This document shows, piece by piece, positions 596 through 12,125 of a stretch of DNA of 21,871 bases. A model generated the notes under the pieces. That model had not been told where the DNA came from. It searched no databases and saw only the letters and a list, made by a program, of their open reading frames with translations. A program made the position numbers and the translations under genes. Location of the stretch: the NCBI GenBank assembly GCA_000385875.2, contig KK365186.1, positions 3,404 through 25,274 of the forward strand. The letters run 5' to 3'. The stretch is from Anncaliia algerae PRA339. Taxonomy: Eukaryota; Microsporidia; Tubulinosematidae. How positions within the stretch are numbered: the stretch's first letter is position 1; every line of letters starts with the position of its first letter.

Positions 596-1117
596 CTAAC
601 AGAATCTTAAATCATCAACAACAACCAAATAAATTAACCCTATTATAAAAAGCAAGATTACACCCATGGAAATTCCAAAAAGTACCCAAGAAAAACTTGG
701 TCTAATTGGATTAGGTGTCCAAAATACATAATTTTCATTTTCTGTTGAGTAAACAAAGGGTTTGGTGGAATATTTAATGCCGTTTTGAATAAAGACAATT
801 GTATAAATCATATTTAAAGGCAATTTTGGCAGTTTGAAAATTACATAATCTTGTTTGTGGTATACCTTACCTCGAATTTTTGTATAATACTTAAATGAAG
901 TGGGGACAGTAGGTGTTCTTGTTCTGTATATGAAAATAGGAGTATTGTCATTAAATTTTTCAAATGTAATATAAGCAGAAGGACTTTCTCTTCCACTTGA
1001 AAATACCACAGGAACTACTTTTGTATTAGTCAAATTTAGACATTTAAATATATTTAAAAATGATAAGAACAAAATTTTTGTTAAATTATCTCCACAGACT
1101 ATTAGCATAATGAGCAA
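596..1117 (-). CDS. Putative single-pass surface protein, short ectodomain
   Basis: This is a 173-residue protein with no family I recognise. The N-terminus is hydrophobic (two stretches, about residues 2-8 and 15-26), consistent with a signal peptide, although the break by GDN makes the exact start uncertain; Met4 is an alternative. A polar ectodomain of about 115 residues follows, then one strong transmembrane helix (about 145-167) and a very short cytosolic tail ending DDLRFC. This suggests a type I membrane protein with its ectodomain outside the cell. It resembles the neighbouring gene at 1305-1898 on the same strand: both have ITFE, then a Tyr-Arg-[TS] strand, then FKLPxL, a Tyr-rich strand, YS.[EK]PF, a C-terminal helix and a final Phe-Cys. 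Identity is low, so they are old paralogs at best. It lies 187 bp downstream of that gene. The function is unknown; a host- or spore-surface role is inference. Confidence 0.75.
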   Translation of the reverse strand: MLIMLIVCGDNLTKILFLSFLNIFKCLNLTNTKVVPVVFSSGRESPSAYITFEKFNDNTPIFIYRTRTPTVPTSFKYYTKIRGKVYHKQDYVIFKLPKLPLNMIYTIVFIQNGIKYSTKPFVYSTENENYVFWTPNPIRPSFSWVLFGISMGVILLFIIGLIYLVVVDDLRFC

Positions 1118-1304
1118 ATTTTAAAGATTAAAATATTACAAGTCGATGGTTGATTTGATTAATTGAAAAAATATAAATCAAAATTAAGTCAAATATAAAC
1201 AAAGAAGAGAACAAGAAATTGACAGTAAAAGATCTTTATAAAGATTTTAAGAATTCTATTATTTAAAAAATTAAAATTGTAATTCTATCTACTTCAACAT
1301 TTAT

Positions 1305-1898
1305 TTAACAGAAAAATTTGTAAATGATTACTAAAAGAATCAAAACCAATGCTGCTATTGCTAATCCCAATGCTATCCATGCAGCGCTTGTAGTGCTCTT
1401 GTGATTTTTTGCTTCTCTGCTTAACATAAATTTGTTTTGAGATTCGCAGAAAGTAAATGGCTCGCTATAATGAGTTTTCTCTTTTTCTCCAGAATTATCG
1501 CAAACCGCTACACAATAAGAATATTTTCTTTCATCTTCAGAAAGAGTAGGTAATTTGAACTTCTTAACCAAACCTCCTTCGCTTTTTATATCAGATTTAC
1601 TAAGCATATGACTAATGGTATAGGAATTTTTATCATCTGGTTTTGTTGATCTGTATAATATTATATTTCCATCTACTTTTCGGTTGTATAAGACTTTACA
1701 AATTGTATTATTTTTACTTCCTTCAAATGTAATTGTTTTAATTGGGTTGTCTTTATCGTTTGATGAGGCAGAAATATTTTGAGGAGGTTTTTTATCCTTC
1801 GTAGTAGATTTACCTGAGTCAACCTTTGGATTTTCTTTCATAGTAACTTTTGTAATTGTTAAAGCCAAAATAGCCCCCGTGACAAACAAAATTCTCAT
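1305..1898 (-). CDS. Putative type I surface protein, paralog of its neighbour
   Basis: This is a 197-residue protein with a signal peptide at about residues 1-17 (MRILFVTGAILALTITK), a Lys/Ser-rich segment (about 20-55), an ectodomain containing three cysteines (in TICKVLY, YCVAVC and FTFCES, four Cys in all) that could form disulfides, a transmembrane helix at about 173-193, and a three- to four-residue tail ending FFC. The arrangement and the motifs ITFE, FKLPTL and YSEPF match the gene at 596-1117, which lacks the paired cysteines. It is divergent from the plus-strand surface gene at 2199, with 300 bp between the start codons that must hold both promoters. It has no close match to any domain family I know. 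Possible roles are spore-wall, plasma-membrane or host-interface protein; none can be shown from sequence alone. Confidence 0.8.
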   Translation of the reverse strand: MRILFVTGAILALTITKVTMKENPKVDSGKSTTKDKKPPQNISASSNDKDNPIKTITFEGSKNNTICKVLYNRKVDGNIILYRSTKPDDKNSYTISHMLSKSDIKSEGGLVKKFKLPTLSEDERKYSYCVAVCDNSGEKEKTHYSEPFTFCESQNKFMLSREAKNHKSTTSAAWIALGLAIAALVLILLVIIYKFFC

Positions 1899-2198
1899 GT
1901 TATTTACAAAACGCTCTATTTAAACATTTGACATCTGATATTATTCAAATGAAAATTTAGATACAAAACATTAATTAATCTCAGATCATAAAAATAAAAT
2001 CAAATATGTCAAAAAAAAAGTTTTTGCGTTTATAAATATTATCTATAGAATTACAGTTTTCATTATATTTTATAAAATTTAAAAGAAAAAATAAATATAT
2101 GATTAAAATATAGATTAATGTCAGAGATCTTTTGATAAATTGACATTAGACTTTAATTAAGCAATAAATTTTGGCATTATATAAGAAAAAATTGGCTT
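1899..2198. promoter_or_regulatory. Divergent intergenic promoter region of the surface-protein genes
   Basis: These 300 bp separate two start codons that point away from each other. A TATA-like element (TATATAAG, 2178-2185) lies 13 bp before the first ATG at 2199, an appropriate place for the plus-strand gene given the very short leaders of microsporidia. For the minus-strand gene no single element stands out from the A+T background. The shared position would allow co-expression, which is inference. Confidence 0.45.
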
Positions 2199-3008
2199 AT
2201 GCCCATGTTACTTTTTCTCGGAACAATTCTATCTGTAAAAATATGGGGAAGAATAAAGCAAGATAAAAAAGATTATTTAGTAGTAGATAATGAAGGAAAC
2301 GGAGTATGTAAACAGGTAAAAATAATATGCTGTCCACATAAAAACTTTAAACATGAAGTTACCACTCATGCTACACCAGAGATGAAAGATAAAAGTAATT
2401 ATACTTTTGTTGAGGTTCCTAAGGATGTCCGCGATCAATATATTAAAGTAGAAATAGTAGATAATCATAATAAGGTCTACAAATCAAAAGCTGTAAATTA
2501 TGGAGATATGAAATCACAATCACCAGATAGATTCTTCAAAGATGCAGTTGTAGAAGAGGGGAAATCACATTCTGGCAAATCGAGTGGTTATGATTATGGT
2601 AAAAAGAGCTCTAGCTGGGATATGGGTTCAGACGATTATGTTGTGGTAGATAATAAATCTTCAGGTAAAAAGGATTCAACAAATGCTGTGCCATGGTATT
2701 TAGATACAAAAAATAATGAATATATTCCCGGATTAGACGGAACAGGAAATGGCTCCTCTTCTTCTGGAAAGACAAAAGGTGAGAATGGTTCAAGTAAATC
2801 AGGTGGAAATGAAAAGGGTTCAAGTAAATCAGGTGGAAATGAAAAGGGTTCAAGTAAATCAGGTGGTAAAAAGGGCGATGAAGAGGAATCAGATGAAGAA
2901 GACGGAGAAGGTTCATCTAAAGACTCTGATAAAGATGAAAAGGATAATGGAATTGCGTCAATGTCAATAGGAATTCTTTTAATTTTTGGTATTCTTACAT
3001 TTTTCTAA
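2199..3008 (+). CDS. Putative GPI-anchored, Ser/Gly/Lys-repeat surface protein
   Basis: This is a 269-residue protein. Residues 1-16 are a signal peptide and a GRIKQD motif begins the mature part. An ectodomain module of about 80 residues has three Cys near residues 37-45 (GVCKQVKIICC). It is followed by a long low-complexity Ser/Gly/Lys/Asp/Glu region (about 118-248), which includes three near-perfect ten-residue repeats GSSKSGGNEK at about 197-225. The C-terminus (249-269, beginning DNGIAS) is hydrophobic to the last residue, as in GPI-attachment signals. There are two possible starts: the ATG at 2199 or a second at 2205, which has CCC immediately before it, the motif found ahead of microsporidian starts. 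The gene at 3268 shares GRIK, a strand-LP-strand pattern and the DNGIAS tail, so the two are tandem paralogs. A short 3' end is suggested by AATAAA at 3012-3017. No known family is recognised. Confidence 0.82.
   Translation: MPMLLFLGTILSVKIWGRIKQDKKDYLVVDNEGNGVCKQVKIICCPHKNFKHEVTTHATPEMKDKSNYTFVEVPKDVRDQYIKVEIVDNHNKVYKSKAVNYGDMKSQSPDRFFKDAVVEEGKSHSGKSSGYDYGKKSSSWDMGSDDYVVVDNKSSGKKDSTNAVPWYLDTKNNEYIPGLDGTGNGSSSSGKTKGENGSSKSGGNEKGSSKSGGNEKGSSKSGGKKGDEEESDEEDGEGSSKDSDKDEKDNGIASMSIGILLIFGILTFF
2787..2873 (+). repeat. 30-bp coding tandem repeat, three copies
   Basis: Copies begin at 2787, 2817 and 2847. The first two are identical over 30 bp and the third diverges after about 21 bp. The unit encodes GSSKSGGNEK, so it stays in frame. 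Identical copies at the DNA level point to recent expansion by slippage or unequal exchange, which makes repeat number likely to vary between isolates. Confidence 0.9.
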
Positions 3009-3011
3009 TTG

Positions 3012-3017
3012 AATAAA
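3012..3017 (+). terminator. AATAAA polyadenylation signal
   Basis: AATAAA lies three bases after the TAA stop of the repeat-containing surface protein. The same arrangement follows the next gene, which supports very short 3' untranslated regions. In A+T-rich DNA this hexamer is common, so the call rests on the repeated position. Confidence 0.4.
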
Positions 3018-3241
3018 GTTGATGTGTAAATTTTTTTAAATTTTCCATTTAATCTTTTCATAAAATTTAATAAAATTCCAGCGTCTTAAAAAACTCTCTT
3101 GTTTGTTTACAAGAATAAAATACATGATTTATTAAATCAGTAACACTTTATAATTCTATAATAAACATTATGAAATGTACAACATGTCATTAAAATTAAA
3201 ATAATAAATCAAATAGAATGTTCTTCCACATGACATAAAAG

Positions 3242-3249
3242 TATAAATA
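3242..3249 (+). promoter_or_regulatory. TATA-like element before the second tandem surface gene
   Basis: TATAAATA ends 18 bp before the ATG at 3268 and is the best TATA match in the 260-bp gap between the tandem genes. The upstream gene has a comparable element 13 bp before its start. Confidence 0.4.
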
Positions 3250-3267
3250 GCATTAAACTATCTTAGC

Positions 3268-3777
3268 ATGTATTTACTTACTATACTCTCAGCAATAAGC
3301 TGCAATTTATCTGGTGAATATCACGGAAGAATAAAAAAAGATGGAAATGAAAAAATAGTCATTTCAGATGTAAAACAGAACTGCGAACCTAAATTATCAG
3401 GTAAGCTGGATGGAGAGAAGATAACCTTTAAATCACAAGAACTTGAATATGAGATGCAGGAAAATATGCTTTACATTACTCTACCAGAAATGCTCAAAGA
3501 TGCAGAAGATTTACAAGTAACACTAAGTTCAGATGATGGAAAAAAGACTATCTCAATTCCAAAGGAAGCTCCGCAGAATCCTGAACTTCCAGTCCATGGG
3601 CAATCAGCAAAGGAAAAAAGTTCTAGCAAAAGTAGCAGCAGTAGCAAGGATGGCAAGAATAAAGAGACAACTAAGGATAAAGAATCCAGCAGCAGTGATA
3701 AAAACAAAGATAACGGAATCGCATCATTTGGTATTCCTATTTTCGGAGTCCTTTTAGCATATTTCTTTATCTTTTAA
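3268..3777 (+). CDS. Putative GPI-anchored surface protein, shorter tandem paralog
   Basis: This is a 169-residue protein with a signal peptide at about 1-14 (MYLLTILSAISCNL), then HGRIKKDGNEKIVISD, which parallels the same region of the gene at 2199. A module of about 85 residues follows, containing a YITLPEM strand, then a Ser/Lys-rich stretch (about 113-147) and a hydrophobic C-terminus (148-169) that again begins DNGIAS and lacks any charged tail. This architecture fits secretion and GPI anchoring. It is essentially the 2199 product without the glycine-rich repeat block. An AATAAA overlaps the region just after the stop (3780-3785). It converges with a small minus-strand gene whose stop lies 48 bp away. 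The family is unknown, and a role at the parasite surface is inferred from architecture only. Confidence 0.82.
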   Translation: MYLLTILSAISCNLSGEYHGRIKKDGNEKIVISDVKQNCEPKLSGKLDGEKITFKSQELEYEMQENMLYITLPEMLKDAEDLQVTLSSDDGKKTISIPKEAPQNPELPVHGQSAKEKSSSKSSSSSKDGKNKETTKDKESSSSDKNKDNGIASFGIPIFGVLLAYFFIF

Positions 3778-3779
3778 TG

Positions 3780-3785
3780 AATAAA
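3780..3785 (+). terminator. AATAAA polyadenylation signal
   Basis: AATAAA begins three bases after the stop codon, mirroring the tandem gene upstream. It is supported only by position and by that parallel. Confidence 0.35.
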
Positions 3786-3825
3786 TGTTAGAAATAAAAA
3801 TGTGTTTATAGAATTTATTAAAATA

Positions 3826-3999
3826 TTATTTATTGTTAGAATCATAGCAGCTTGTAATGATATTTTGTAAATCTTTTAAATTGTTTATTGCACTTTCTGT
3901 TGATTCTTCATTCTTCTGAATATCATTAAACATTTTATTTAAACTATCAGCAAATGATAAAAGTAAATCAACTGACTTCAAGTATTTTTTCTCCTCCAT
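3826..3999 (-). CDS. Small 57-residue helical protein, unidentified
   Basis: An open frame from ATG at 3999 to TAA at 3826 encodes a 57-residue, soluble, charged protein starting MEEKKYLKSVDLL. Hydrophobic residues recur every three to four positions (L-L-F..L..M...I, then I..L..L..II), as expected of one or two amphipathic or coiled-coil helices. There is no signal peptide and no cysteine pair. Its base composition is richer in G+C than the flanks and the codons look normal for the window. It sits between the surface-protein cluster (48 bp, convergent) and the CAAX-protease relic (140 bp between divergent starts). Very short helical proteins of this kind occur among DASH-complex kinetochore subunits and other small scaffold proteins, but I see no diagnostic motif and do not assign one. 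Confidence 0.6.
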   Translation of the reverse strand: MEEKKYLKSVDLLLSFADSLNKMFNDIQKNEESTESAINNLKDLQNIITSCYDSNNK

Positions 4000-4139
4000 A
4001 AATAAAATTTAATTTACATTTTTAATTAAAAATGCTTTATTTATGGTCAACAGAAAAAGTCAAAAATATTATTTAATTAAATAGGATTCTTAAGAATTCA
4101 TTAATTTAACAGTTAAAAATAAATATTTTTACTTTTTAG

Positions 4140-5309
4140 ATGAGCAAATCATTTACAACAAAAATATTTCTATTTCTTGCTTTGCTTTATAATTCATTCT
4201 TATTTTATGTATTTTTAGACCTGAAAAGATACAAAACATTGTTATATAAAAATAGAAACATATTTGGGAATAAAACAGTTGATAAATTAATAAATTCTTC
4301 CCACATTGAAACATTTAGAAAAAAGGAATTACAAAACATTTTAAACCAAAATAAAACTTTATTGGTTGATTTAACCTTGTTTTGGACATTATTGCTGATA
4401 AATCTGTTATTTTACAATGATCATGCCAGAAATATAATTATTAAACAATCTAAGAAATATTTAAAAAGAATAATTGACTTGTGTTGTGTAGAAAATGATG
4501 AGAAATCTGCTGTTTTAATATTTTATACAAATTTAATGATTTTAGCCAATTTGCTTTATTTTACTCCATTTTTGTCACTTTGGAAAAATGTACTCCTCTA
4601 TTTTTGCTATGTAAATTTATTGATACTCAATCAGAAATACATTTATTCTTTTGACATCACAAAGATTAGAAAAAGAATGTATTTTTTATTTACCTTAACT
4701 ATTTTCCTTGTTAGTGAAGTATTTCATACTGTTACAATTCATTATGTTTACAAGGATAAAAAAGGAAAGATACCAGCATTCTTACGTGGAGAACCCCTAG
4801 AATTAGCTACTAAACACTTTGATATAGAGAATATATATTTTAATAATCAGAATGGAATAAATATGTGCAGCTCATATAAACTCTTTACAAATATTCTTAT
4901 TATACTTGGAAATTGGGCTTCATTTACAAAAAAAGAAATCACTTCTGTTGTTGCCCATGAAATTGGACACGGCGGAATAGTTTTGAAATATTTCACTTCC
5001 TTTGTATATTGTGTTATAAAGGTATTTAGTTTATATATTTATTCTTTGGGGATTAAATTATTCTCGAAAAGGTTTGAGACTAAATCTGAGAAAATTAGAA
5101 TATTTTTACGTTAAACGGTTTTTCTTTCTCAATTATAGATTTTATTTAAATACCTTAGAAAATTTCGAATAGAAGGAAATGCTAACTTTATACAAGCATT
5201 TATAAAATAATTAAATTTGCATTTGAAAGAATAACAGCAAAGTACTTTTAATTATTCTATTTCCCAAGAACAAATCTTTTGAATAAGTACAAAATATAGA
5301 ATAAATTCA
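4140..5309 (+). pseudogene. STE24: Ste24-type CAAX prenyl protease, decayed C-terminus
   Basis: Ste24 is an M48 zinc metalloprotease of the ER/nuclear membrane that trims prenylated CAAX proteins. The first 324 codons are open: a hydrophobic multi-pass N-terminus, then VVAHEIGHG with zinc-site residues His273, Glu274 and His277, ending at TAA 5112-5114 before the third zinc ligand. The same frame carries on as recognisable Ste24 beyond the stop. It reads LRKFRIEGNANF at 5154-5189, matching the family's E-x-x-A-D motif with Glu at codon 345, 71 residues after the HE (79 in human ZMPSTE24) and the Asp replaced by Asn. Then comes an Asn-Tyr-Ser stretch where the family has a Ser-His-Pro-containing motif. 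In-frame stops lie at 5112, 5136, 5208, 5232 and 5280. The family's late His and Arg are lost. With no frameshift but five stops, this is a pseudogene broken by substitutions. A translated 324-residue product would lack a complete active site. Splicing cannot remove all the stops. Its tail overlaps the end of the convergent gene by three bases. Confidence 0.85.
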
Positions 5310-9929: not shown

Positions 9930-12125
9930 CTATTCTGGTAAAATTAAATCGTAAATTTTTGTATTATCGTGTATTTGAGGCTTTTTGCTGTTCTTTAAAA
10001 AATAATAATTATTTGAACAATCATAAAACACAAGTAAGCTATTTGATAGATCAAACACATAGATGCAATAGTTTCCCAATACCACCAAATACTTGCCAAA
10101 AATTTTAAAATCATGGGCGCTTTCATCCCAAGCATAGAAAAGCGACGAATTAAATATTTTAAATTCCGAACTTACCACATATCCAAAATTTTTATAACAA
10201 AGAATAAAATTACCATCTCCTATGTGTAAAATTTTTTTGCCTTCTGGTTTTTCTATCATGGAAAAATAGCATATTTTTATAATCTCGTCATTCACGGAAA
10301 TTTCTTTAATAATTGTGCTGTTTATGTTTACACACGTAAAAATTTCGGATACTACTATTAAATTGGATCCTTCTAGAGCTTCTAAAAAAACTACTTGGGA
10401 AGGAACGTAGAATTCTCCTCGCAAGATCATTCTGATTGTATTGTCAAATTCTGTAATTTCATAATAAAATATACGACTTTCGGCATTTTTTAATTCCACC
10501 ATAAAAATATATGGCATATCATAAAGATATATGTAAAAAAACTTGCTTATATTTTTCCTAACGAAATAAATGTCCAAAGAGCTTGAATTTGAATTTAAAG
10601 GGGAGACCACACATGAATTATCAACCAATAAAATTAATACATTAGGCTCTAATGCATATATCATGTCTTTTGGTATGATTGACGATATGTTTTTGTATTC
10701 ATTATTTGTCATCATAAATGTTCCACTTTGATTTGCAATTATTTTAAGAGAACCATCAATTTGTAAATTTGGTAATTTTTCAAACGAAATTACATGTTCT
10801 ATAATTTGTGCTTTTGAAAAAAAATTTCTAAAAATACTTGTGTATTTATACATATCTTCTCCATTAATACTTTGATCTGGTAATTGCAAAGAATCTAGGT
10901 TGTTTTTTTTGTTACAAAATTGGGCAATATTTTTAAAAAAGTTTTTTTCAGGGGGCAGAGCTAAGGTATAATTAATACTTTTCGTTGATGTCATCTTTTC
11001 ATAAATATATGGAGTACAAATTAACTTAATATCTTTTAAAGGCAATTTAGATTCCTCTAATATTTTTATCCTTTTATCAAAAAACTTTAATGTACTTCTA
11101 ACAGAAATATCAAAGGAATTTAACCAATTTATCATGTCTCTTTGATGCTTAAAGTAAATGAGAATTTTTTCTTCTTCATTAAAATCATGAAGTTCAATCG
11201 AATATCTATTTAATTCATTTTCTTCTCCTAAAACTTTGTAAAGATACTTAAACTGCTCAATATAATATTTTAAGTAAATCATCTCATTTTCATCTTGCAT
11301 TACAACAACGTCGCAAAACAAAATGTAATTGTCCAAGACAATAACCCTATAATTATTAATCAAGCTATTTATCTTTACAAACAAATCCCTTTCATCAAAT
11401 ATTTTACGTTTTCTGCTCCAAAGAAATAAATTTGGCACGGATTTACTCATTAGTCTATTTCTTAAAATTTCTCTAAACTGATATAGTCGGAAATCATTTT
11501 TTGCCTCACCCAAAATTATTTCACTTTGTGAGTTAAAATTTTTAATATCATTTAATATTTTAATAAAATTATCTTTGATTTCTAAAACATTGATTCTTTT
11601 AACTAAACCTTCCAATAAAAGAGGATATCTAACAAGTTTAAATGCTGGTTTATAGATAAAATGCTTGTATCCTAACTTATCTATTCCGTTTTTTTGTAAA
11701 AATCTTGATACAAAGATATTAAATTCTTTGTCGTTTTTGTATCTATAGTCAAAAAAAAAGTCTATTCTTGGGAGGTTCATCAAATATTCATTGTACACAT
11801 TTATTTGCTTAACAAACTCTATAAATACATTATAAACATTAATAAGCAAATCGTTGATATTTTTTTCATTTATTTTAGATTTATCTTCAGGGAAAATTCT
11901 GTTAAAGTCTTCGAGAAGACAAGTATGCACTTTCAAAATTTTTGACATTTCACAAAAAAATAGATTATTCAAATAAGTGGCTTTGATATTGTCAAAAATG
12001 GGAGTAAACTTTATTGCTCTTTTCAAAGAAACACACCAAATATTTAGTTCAAATACATAGTTTTTTTCCGACTCATATAGTTCAAAAAGTGCTTCGATTT
12101 CTTTGTTTGCCATAATTCTTGCCAA
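9930..12125 (-). CDS. Rho guanine-nucleotide exchange factor (DH-PH-CNH)
   Basis: This is a 731-residue cytosolic protein. The DH domain (about 8-200) starts EALFELYESEKNYVFEL and ends with the hallmark helix FKLVRYPLLLEGLVKRI (162-178), which contacts the GTPase. A PH domain follows (about 235-345; NYRVIVLDNYILFCDVV as the first strands). The C-terminal half (about 400-715) is a citron-homology (CNH) beta-propeller, recognisable by FILCYKNFGYVV and, near the end, GKYLVVLGNYCIYVFDL. This order is that of fungal Rom1/Rom2 and Tus1, which activate Rho1 for cortical actin and cell-wall synthesis. The N-terminal DEP domain and long disordered leader of yeast Rom2 are missing, so this is a minimal version. 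Met1 and Met5 are both possible starts; both keep the whole DH domain. The gene is single and followed on its strand by the forkhead gene 447 bp on. Confidence 0.88.
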   Translation of the reverse strand: MARIMANKEIEALFELYESEKNYVFELNIWCVSLKRAIKFTPIFDNIKATYLNNLFFCEMSKILKVHTCLLEDFNRIFPEDKSKINEKNINDLLINVYNVFIEFVKQINVYNEYLMNLPRIDFFFDYRYKNDKEFNIFVSRFLQKNGIDKLGYKHFIYKPAFKLVRYPLLLEGLVKRINVLEIKDNFIKILNDIKNFNSQSEIILGEAKNDFRLYQFREILRNRLMSKSVPNLFLWSRKRKIFDERDLFVKINSLINNYRVIVLDNYILFCDVVVMQDENEMIYLKYYIEQFKYLYKVLGEENELNRYSIELHDFNEEEKILIYFKHQRDMINWLNSFDISVRSTLKFFDKRIKILEESKLPLKDIKLICTPYIYEKMTSTKSINYTLALPPEKNFFKNIAQFCNKKNNLDSLQLPDQSINGEDMYKYTSIFRNFFSKAQIIEHVISFEKLPNLQIDGSLKIIANQSGTFMMTNNEYKNISSIIPKDMIYALEPNVLILLVDNSCVVSPLNSNSSSLDIYFVRKNISKFFYIYLYDMPYIFMVELKNAESRIFYYEITEFDNTIRMILRGEFYVPSQVVFLEALEGSNLIVVSEIFTCVNINSTIIKEISVNDEIIKICYFSMIEKPEGKKILHIGDGNFILCYKNFGYVVSSEFKIFNSSLFYAWDESAHDFKIFGKYLVVLGNYCIYVFDLSNSLLVFYDCSNNYYFLKNSKKPQIHDNTKIYDLILPE

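What the first reader, a model, noticed from the sequence alone, without database searches (positions are those of the whole stretch)
596..3777. Four-gene surface-protein cluster: one ectodomain module with two kinds of membrane anchor
Two minus-strand genes end in a transmembrane helix plus a Phe-Cys tail, and two plus-strand genes end in a DNGIAS hydrophobic GPI-like signal. All four have a signal peptide and, about two-thirds through the module, a strand of the form [FI]x[LV]P followed by a Tyr/Val-rich strand and a polar turn: IFKLPKL, KFKLPTL, FVEVPKD and YITLPEM. Within each pair the similarity is clearer (ITFE and FKLP; GRIK and DNGIAS). This looks like local duplication of a small beta-rich secreted domain with alternative anchoring, a plausible undescribed host-interface family.
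Basis: partly seen in the sequence, partly recalled or inferred. Interest (0 to 1): 0.75.

Follow-up and report, generated by a model that had tools for sequence, protein, structure and literature searches.

The report
Twin pairs of Ig-like surface proteins
Four neighbouring genes of a microsporidian parasite encode small, likely secreted proteins that form two pairs of likely relatives, one pair ending in a predicted membrane-spanning segment and one in a predicted lipid-anchor signal, and a member of each pair is predicted to carry an immunoglobulin-like domain, so they would likely act as recognition or attachment proteins on the parasite surface.

Summary
The four ORFs, their order (two minus, two plus, head to head) and their two kinds of C-terminus are real. 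Genes 1 and 2 are homologous: the Tubulinosema ratisbonensis relative of gene 2 finds gene 1 in the genome at E 3e-4, and global ectodomain alignments across the two families reach shuffle levels at most once in 2000. Genes 3 and 4 are probably homologous (4 of 2000 shuffles reach the global score). No pair-to-pair sequence similarity was found. The [FI]x[LV]P motif is weak: gene 3 does not fit it, and its Pro is not kept in gene 2's relatives. The DNGIAS match belongs to the anchor signal; a protein elsewhere in the genome ends in DNGVSS plus a hydrophobic tail. Genes 2 and 4, one of each pair, fold with good confidence into beta-sandwiches whose listed PDB matches are nearly all immunoglobulin-superfamily entries, though scores stay below family level. 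Gene 2 has Cys at the usual Ig disulfide positions. So one small beta domain on two anchors holds as a predicted fold class, not as proven descent. Ectodomains differ more between relatives than anchors. Function is inferred: surface recognition. There are no expression or localisation data, and much of the genome is withheld.

The parts
596..1108 (-). gene 1, 170 aa: hydrophobic N-terminus, ectodomain, predicted TM helix, tail ending Phe-Cys
   Evidence: relative P0007 64% identical; no Pfam domain over cut-off
749..1036 (-). gene 1 ectodomain (residues 25-120), homologous to that of gene 2
   Evidence: FDLP in P0007
599..694 (-). gene 1 TM segment and tail (residues 139-170), with GISMG (GxxxG) and C-terminal Phe-Cys; 30 of 32 residues kept in P0007
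1305..1898 (-). gene 2, 197 aa: hydrophobic N-terminus, low-confidence linker, Ig-like ectodomain, TM helix, tail KFFC
   Evidence: relatives P0002 57% and P0003 (T. ratisbonensis TUBRATIS_008610) 53%
1446..1748 (-). gene 2 ectodomain (residues 51-151), predicted beta-sandwich
1548..1559 (-). gene 2 FKLP (residues 114-117) at the end of predicted strand 111-115; Pro is Asp in both relatives
1698..1700 (-). gene 2 Cys67 on predicted strand 66-71 (read as strand B), kept in all 3 sequences
1512..1514 (-). gene 2 Cys129 on predicted strand 127-134 (read as strand F), kept in all 3 sequences
1308..1382 (-). gene 2 TM helix and tail (residues 173-197), 21 of 25 residues kept in each of 2 relatives
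1899..2198 (.). 300-bp divergent intergenic region between the two pairs
2199..3008 (+). gene 3, 269 aa: hydrophobic N-terminus, ectodomain, Ser/Gly/Lys/Asp-rich stalk with short repeats, GPI-type signal
   Evidence: searched only in its own genome and against Pfam
2241..2510 (+). gene 3 ectodomain (residues 15-104), probably homologous to that of gene 4; not folded
2406..2420 (+). gene 3 FVEVP, does not fit the strict [FI]x[LV]P
2943..3005 (+). gene 3 DNGIAS plus hydrophobic tail, predicted GPI signal
3268..3777 (+). gene 4, 169 aa: hydrophobic N-terminus, Ig-like ectodomain, Ser/Lys-rich stalk, GPI-type signal; 97% copy at G000:C78:8400-8906
3316..3567 (+). gene 4 ectodomain (residues 17-100), predicted 8-strand beta-sandwich
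3472..3486 (+). gene 4 YITLP (residues 69-73) on predicted strand 67-71
3709..3774 (+). gene 4 DNGIAS plus hydrophobic tail, predicted GPI signal, identical in P0004, P0005 and the C78 copy
3062..4862 (.). block repeated at 97.7% identity in C78:8194-10000 (gene 4 and the start of the HEIGH-motif gene)

Best explanation
The locus holds two head-to-head pairs of genes for small, likely secreted proteins, genes 1-2 ending in a predicted transmembrane segment with a Phe-Cys tail and genes 3-4 in a predicted GPI-anchor signal, whose single ectodomains are predicted to fold as immunoglobulin-like beta-sandwiches and which would likely work as surface recognition or attachment proteins. Shown by sequence: homology of 1 with 2, probable homology of 3 with 4, and ectodomains that differ more between relatives than their anchors. 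Predicted: the Ig-like fold (genes 2 and 4 only), the signal peptides, the TM segments, the GPI attachment. Inferred: each pair arose by tandem duplication; the proteins sit on the parasite plasma membrane or in the spore wall; the ectodomain binds a host or parasite partner and changes with it, while the conserved TM segment (small-xxx-small spacing in both genes) or GPI anchor keeps position and partners in the membrane. Whether the two pairs share an ancestor or reached the same common fold separately is open.
Confidence: 0.58

Rival explanations
1. The two pairs are unrelated clade-specific families that merely lie side by side; the shared Ig-like arrangement is convergence on the commonest beta-sandwich, and only the anchor signals of 3 and 4 look alike because the genome uses one kind of GPI signal.
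For: No cross-pair sequence signal in 15 comparisons by two scores each. Gene 2 matches V-type Ig and FN3-like domains, gene 4 C/I-type Ig domains (set names recalled). The DNGVSS tail of the C4 protein aligns with gene 4's tail at 0 of 1000 shuffles.
Against: Adjacency and head-to-head order of two pairs of similar build; both folds fall in the same broad class; the motif strand sits at the same place in both sandwiches. Genes 3 and 4 also share ectodomain signal beyond the anchor.
Confidence: 0.4
2. Spore-wall or endospore structural proteins: the GPI pair and the TM pair build or tether the wall during sporulation, with no host partner.
For: EnP2/SWP3 of Encephalitozoon cuniculi is a 221-aa GPI-anchored endospore protein with O-glycosylation sites (table passage in PMC10381864), an architecture close to genes 3 and 4; low-complexity Ser/Lys stalks.
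Against: Ectodomains diverge faster than stalk and anchor; no family in Pfam, spore-wall or other, is matched over its cut-off.
Confidence: 0.25
3. Genes 1 and 2 are secretory-pathway cargo receptors of the p24 kind, with the FF/Phe-Cys tail as an export signal.
For: Type-I build, about 200 aa, beta-rich lumenal domain, FF in gene 2's tail (sequence; p24 features recalled).
Against: No EMP24/GOLD match in Pfam; the gene 2 model has only an 8-residue helix (160-167, pLDDT about 67) before the TM helix, not a long coiled coil; ectodomain poorly conserved.
Confidence: 0.08

Closest known systems
Immunoglobulin superfamily single-domain surface proteins (V-set such as PD-1; C/I-set such as basigin, titin Ig)
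   Same: Predicted beta-sandwich (genes 2 and 4); gene 2 has cysteines at the B and F strand positions; one domain on a TM or GPI anchor
   Different: No Pfam or PDB sequence match; B-F cysteine pair only in gene 2; microsporidian rather than animal
Fibronectin type III domains (PelI pectate lyase N-terminal domain)
   Different: No fn3 Pfam match; FN3 domains lack the B-F disulfide that gene 2 could form (recalled)
Microsporidian host-exposed, clade-specific proteins (Nematocida large gene families, PMC5423893, passages read)
   Same: Signal peptide and/or C-terminal TM, clade-limited as far as searched, adjacent local duplication
   Different: Large families there have at least 10 members; here four genes seen, and GPI is not mentioned in that paper's main text (0 occurrences)
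Encephalitozoon EnP2/SWP3 GPI-anchored endospore protein (PMC10381864, table passage)
   Same: Small and GPI-anchored, with O-glycosylation sites there and a Ser-rich stalk here
   Different: No sequence link tested; ectodomain relation unknown
Fungal Kre9/KNH1 Ser/Thr-rich GPI family (PF10342)
   Same: Small beta domain, Ser-rich stalk, GPI signal (architecture recalled)
   Different: No PF10342 match in the searchable genome or in any of 9 proteins scanned

Membership tests
Immunoglobulin superfamily | Ig-like beta-sandwich | tested here: met
Immunoglobulin superfamily | Cys pair on strands B and F | tested here: inconclusive
   Gene 2 and its 2 relatives have it; genes 1, 3 and 4 do not; strand letters are my reading
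Immunoglobulin superfamily | Sequence match to an Ig or I-set/V-set Pfam model | tested here: not met
Fibronectin type III | Sequence match to Pfam fn3 | tested here: not met
Kre9/KNH1 (PF10342) | Match to the family model | tested here: not met
   0 matches in the searchable genome at E <= 10; none in 9 scanned proteins
p24/EMP24 (GOLD) | Match to the family model | tested here: not met
GPI-anchored proteins | Small-residue site followed by a hydrophobic tail to the C-terminus, and transamidase in the genome | tested here: met
   Genes 3, 4; Peptidase_C13 gene, E 1.4e-19, with GHG and DTC stretches; NetGPI not available
GPI-anchored proteins | Lipid shown on the protein | not testable with these tools
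   needs biochemistry
Microsporidian large host-exposed families | Signal peptide and/or TM | tested here: met
   Crude hydropathy rule, 4 of 4
[quoted passage not shown]
   Only these genes and one copy of gene 4 found, but much of the genome is withheld

The most novel reading that the evidence does not exclude
A microsporidian has its own set of immunoglobulin-like recognition proteins, a V-like pair on transmembrane anchors and a C-like pair on GPI anchors, born by duplication at one locus and diverging under pressure from a host or mating partner: an independent fungal-lineage counterpart of animal Ig-type surface receptors.
Probability: 0.25. Interest if true: 0.7.

Novelty: new variant of a known kind. 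Interest (0 to 1): 0.47.

Why it matters
Many clade-specific microsporidian surface proteins have no recognisable domain (recalled; in a passage read, PMC10393165 found no solved-structure match for three of the four further large Nematocida families that it modelled), so how these parasites touch host cells is poorly known. If the reading is right, a compact gene cluster with a predicted binding fold on two anchors, with a relative of gene 2 in Tubulinosema ratisbonensis, which infects Drosophila (PMC6675976), would give four small candidates for host or self recognition that can be tested.

Tried and rejected
Rejected as homology evidence: the four-way [FI]x[LV]P motif, the ITFE register, and DNGIAS (anchor signal also on the C4 protein). 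Considered and not met: Kre9/KNH1 and p24. Weak Pfam rows taken as chance: among them Orf78 E 0.038 (1 of 5), HYR-like E 1.4 (1 of 5), HSP20 E 0.052 (2 of 4), DUF4519 E 0.05 (2 of 4). One MAFFT alignment of full-length genes 3 and 4 was misled by the stalks and was replaced by one with gene 3 cut at residue 114. PDB sequence searches gave nothing useful. The viral structure library for gene 2 gave the same broad class among mixed rows (herpesvirus glycoproteins, phage Fn3-like proteins), best E 2.6e-3, none under 0.001. A background sample of 20 stretches returned 18; 11 of the 18 read N throughout, 6 in part, 1 not at all. It yielded 14 ORFs of 120 aa or more, 5 with a hydrophobic N-terminus and none with the signal-plus-single-C-terminal-anchor build, against 4 of 11 in the window, too small for a rate. 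TM-score between the two models could not be computed: no coordinates are laid in the Python box. The C4 protein's body scored 12 of 1000 against gene 4's ectodomain, a possible weak link that I did not follow; that protein has no Pfam match at E <= 0.1. Papers: PMC6675976, part 1 of 2 of the whole text (main text and part of the references); PMC5423893, PMC10393165, PMC10759460, PMC10381864, PMC11999971, PMC11573180 and PMC7862400, passages only; the rest search listings. Searches for microsporidia with Ig-like domain, immunoglobulin fold, immunoglobulin-like plus AlphaFold, and fibronectin type III listed no paper that, by its title, abstract start or the passages I read, describes such proteins in microsporidia; that covers open-licence PMC papers only, and most listed papers were judged by listing alone.
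Full report
What is there. The window is a stretch of contig C44 (45,936 bases) of a 5.6-Mb, 78-contig genome (contig length). Its other genes (actin, proteasome, MED6, forkhead, RhoGEF with CNH), about 24% G+C, and a relative of gene 2 from Tubulinosema ratisbonensis at 53% identity fit a microsporidian near that genus; the organism itself is not named. The four ORFs of the finding exist at the stated places: genes 1 and 2 on the minus strand, genes 3 and 4 on the plus strand, with 300 bases between the two pairs. All four pass a crude rule for a hydrophobic N-terminus, one hydrophobic C-terminal stretch and none between; none of the other seven window ORFs of 120 aa or more kept by the script does, though two of those seven have a hydrophobic N-terminus.

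Pair A. Gene 1 and gene 2 share a type-I build and a C-terminal Phe-Cys. A direct BLASTP gives E 4e-6 for the single comparison, TM part included. I therefore tested ectodomains alone with relatives: gene 1 or P0007 against gene 2, P0002 or P0003 gave 0 of 2000 shuffles at or above the global score in 5 of 6 comparisons and 1 of 2000 in the sixth; the local score was reached by 85, 5, 0, 15, 0 and 2 of 2000. The T. ratisbonensis protein P0003 finds gene 1 in the genome at E 3.0e-4, 26% identity over its residues 47-188, TM part included. Profile comparison gives P 8.4e-4 over 119 columns, probability only 24%. I take pair A as a real, old duplication.

Pair B. Gene 3 and gene 4 ectodomains: global score reached by 4 of 2000 shuffles (gene 4), 1 (P0004) and 21 (P0005); local by 27, 5 and 47; hhalign P 7.6e-5 but over only 19 columns around GRIK. 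I call this probable. The DNGIAS match is a property of the anchor signal: a degenerate pattern for it occurs 5 times in the searchable genome against 0 for the reversed control. Three matches are gene 3, gene 4 and a copy of gene 4; one is inside an ORF that looks like a helicase (GPPGTGKT, not scanned); and one is in a 264-aa secreted-type protein on C4 that ends KDNGVSSFSIVGVVMLIVLNM. That tail aligns with gene 4's at 0 of 1000 shuffles, while its body is unlike gene 3's ectodomain (989 of 1000) and only doubtfully like gene 4's (12 of 1000). A Peptidase_C13 gene, the GPI transamidase type, is present at E 1.4e-19, so GPI attachment is plausible.

Between pairs. No sequence link: 15 cross comparisons by two scores each, best 28 of 2000 (gene 1 against P0005, global), then 53 (gene 1 against gene 3, global), as 30 tries would give; profile comparisons align only 8 to 30 columns. 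The strict motif is in 3 of 4 ectodomains and its Pro is Asp in both relatives of gene 2.

Which parts change. In gene 1 against P0007 the ectodomain keeps 53 of 96 residues and the TM plus tail 30 of 32; in gene 2, 58 and 54 of 100 against 21 of 25; in gene 4 against P0005, 66 of 84 against 66 of 69 for stalk and GPI signal (Fisher P 3e-5, 0.020, 0.006, 0.002). These segments were chosen after looking; gene 1's juxtamembrane stretch (11 of 18) and gene 2's N-terminal linker (14 of 41, 13 of 46) are not well kept. The C78 copy of gene 4 differs by five amino acids, all between residues 27 and 64, and by two silent changes; the numbers are too small to claim selection. Both TM segments keep small-xxx-small spacing (GISMG in gene 1, GLAIA in gene 2), which would suit helix pairing (inference).

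How it most likely works. Small surface recognition proteins: the Ig-like domain reaches out, on a short juxtamembrane stretch (pair A) or a Ser/Lys-rich stalk (pair B), and binds a partner; the anchor fixes place and company. Host contact is favoured by clade restriction as far as searched and by ectodomain divergence; targeting signals, clade restriction and large gene families are the features in which experimentally found host-exposed proteins of Nematocida are enriched (passages of PMC5423893). Spore-wall roles like EnP2/SWP3 (table passage of PMC10381864) and parasite-parasite recognition are not excluded.

Limits. No SignalP, TMHMM or NetGPI; two folds only; no superposition; gene 3 was searched for relatives only in its own genome; much of that genome is withheld (11 of 18 sampled stretches wholly), so absence of further members is not shown; no expression data.

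Noticed in passing
window 3062-4862 and L006 8194-10000 (C78): A 1.8-kb block with gene 4 and the start of the next gene is present twice at 97.7% identity; left of it C78 carries unrelated DNA with an ISXO2/IS1595-type transposase (L006 4139-4909, Pfam E 2.4e-15), and the searches with genes 1-3 found no copy there. Either a duplication or an alternate haplotype.
   Followed up: partly
L011 769-1563(+) and 1-279(-): The C4 secreted-type gene with the DNGVSS tail lies head to head with a second copy of its start, which runs off the locus: bases 1-1047 of L011 match their own reverse complement at 86% identity.
   Followed up: no
window 4140-5114: A 324-aa multi-membrane ORF with HEIGH, like a Ste24/M48 protease (recalled), stops about 50 residues after the motif and has no M48 match in Pfam; it may be short, split or degraded.
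   Followed up: no
window 9930-12113: A RhoGEF plus CNH protein (Pfam E 1.3e-17 and 1.1e-9) in a microsporidian genome.
   Followed up: no
window 1899-2198 and 3208-3267: TATA-like stretches (TATATAA, TATAAAT) lie about 14-25 bases before the start codons of genes 3 and 4; the two pairs diverge from one 300-bp region.
   Followed up: no
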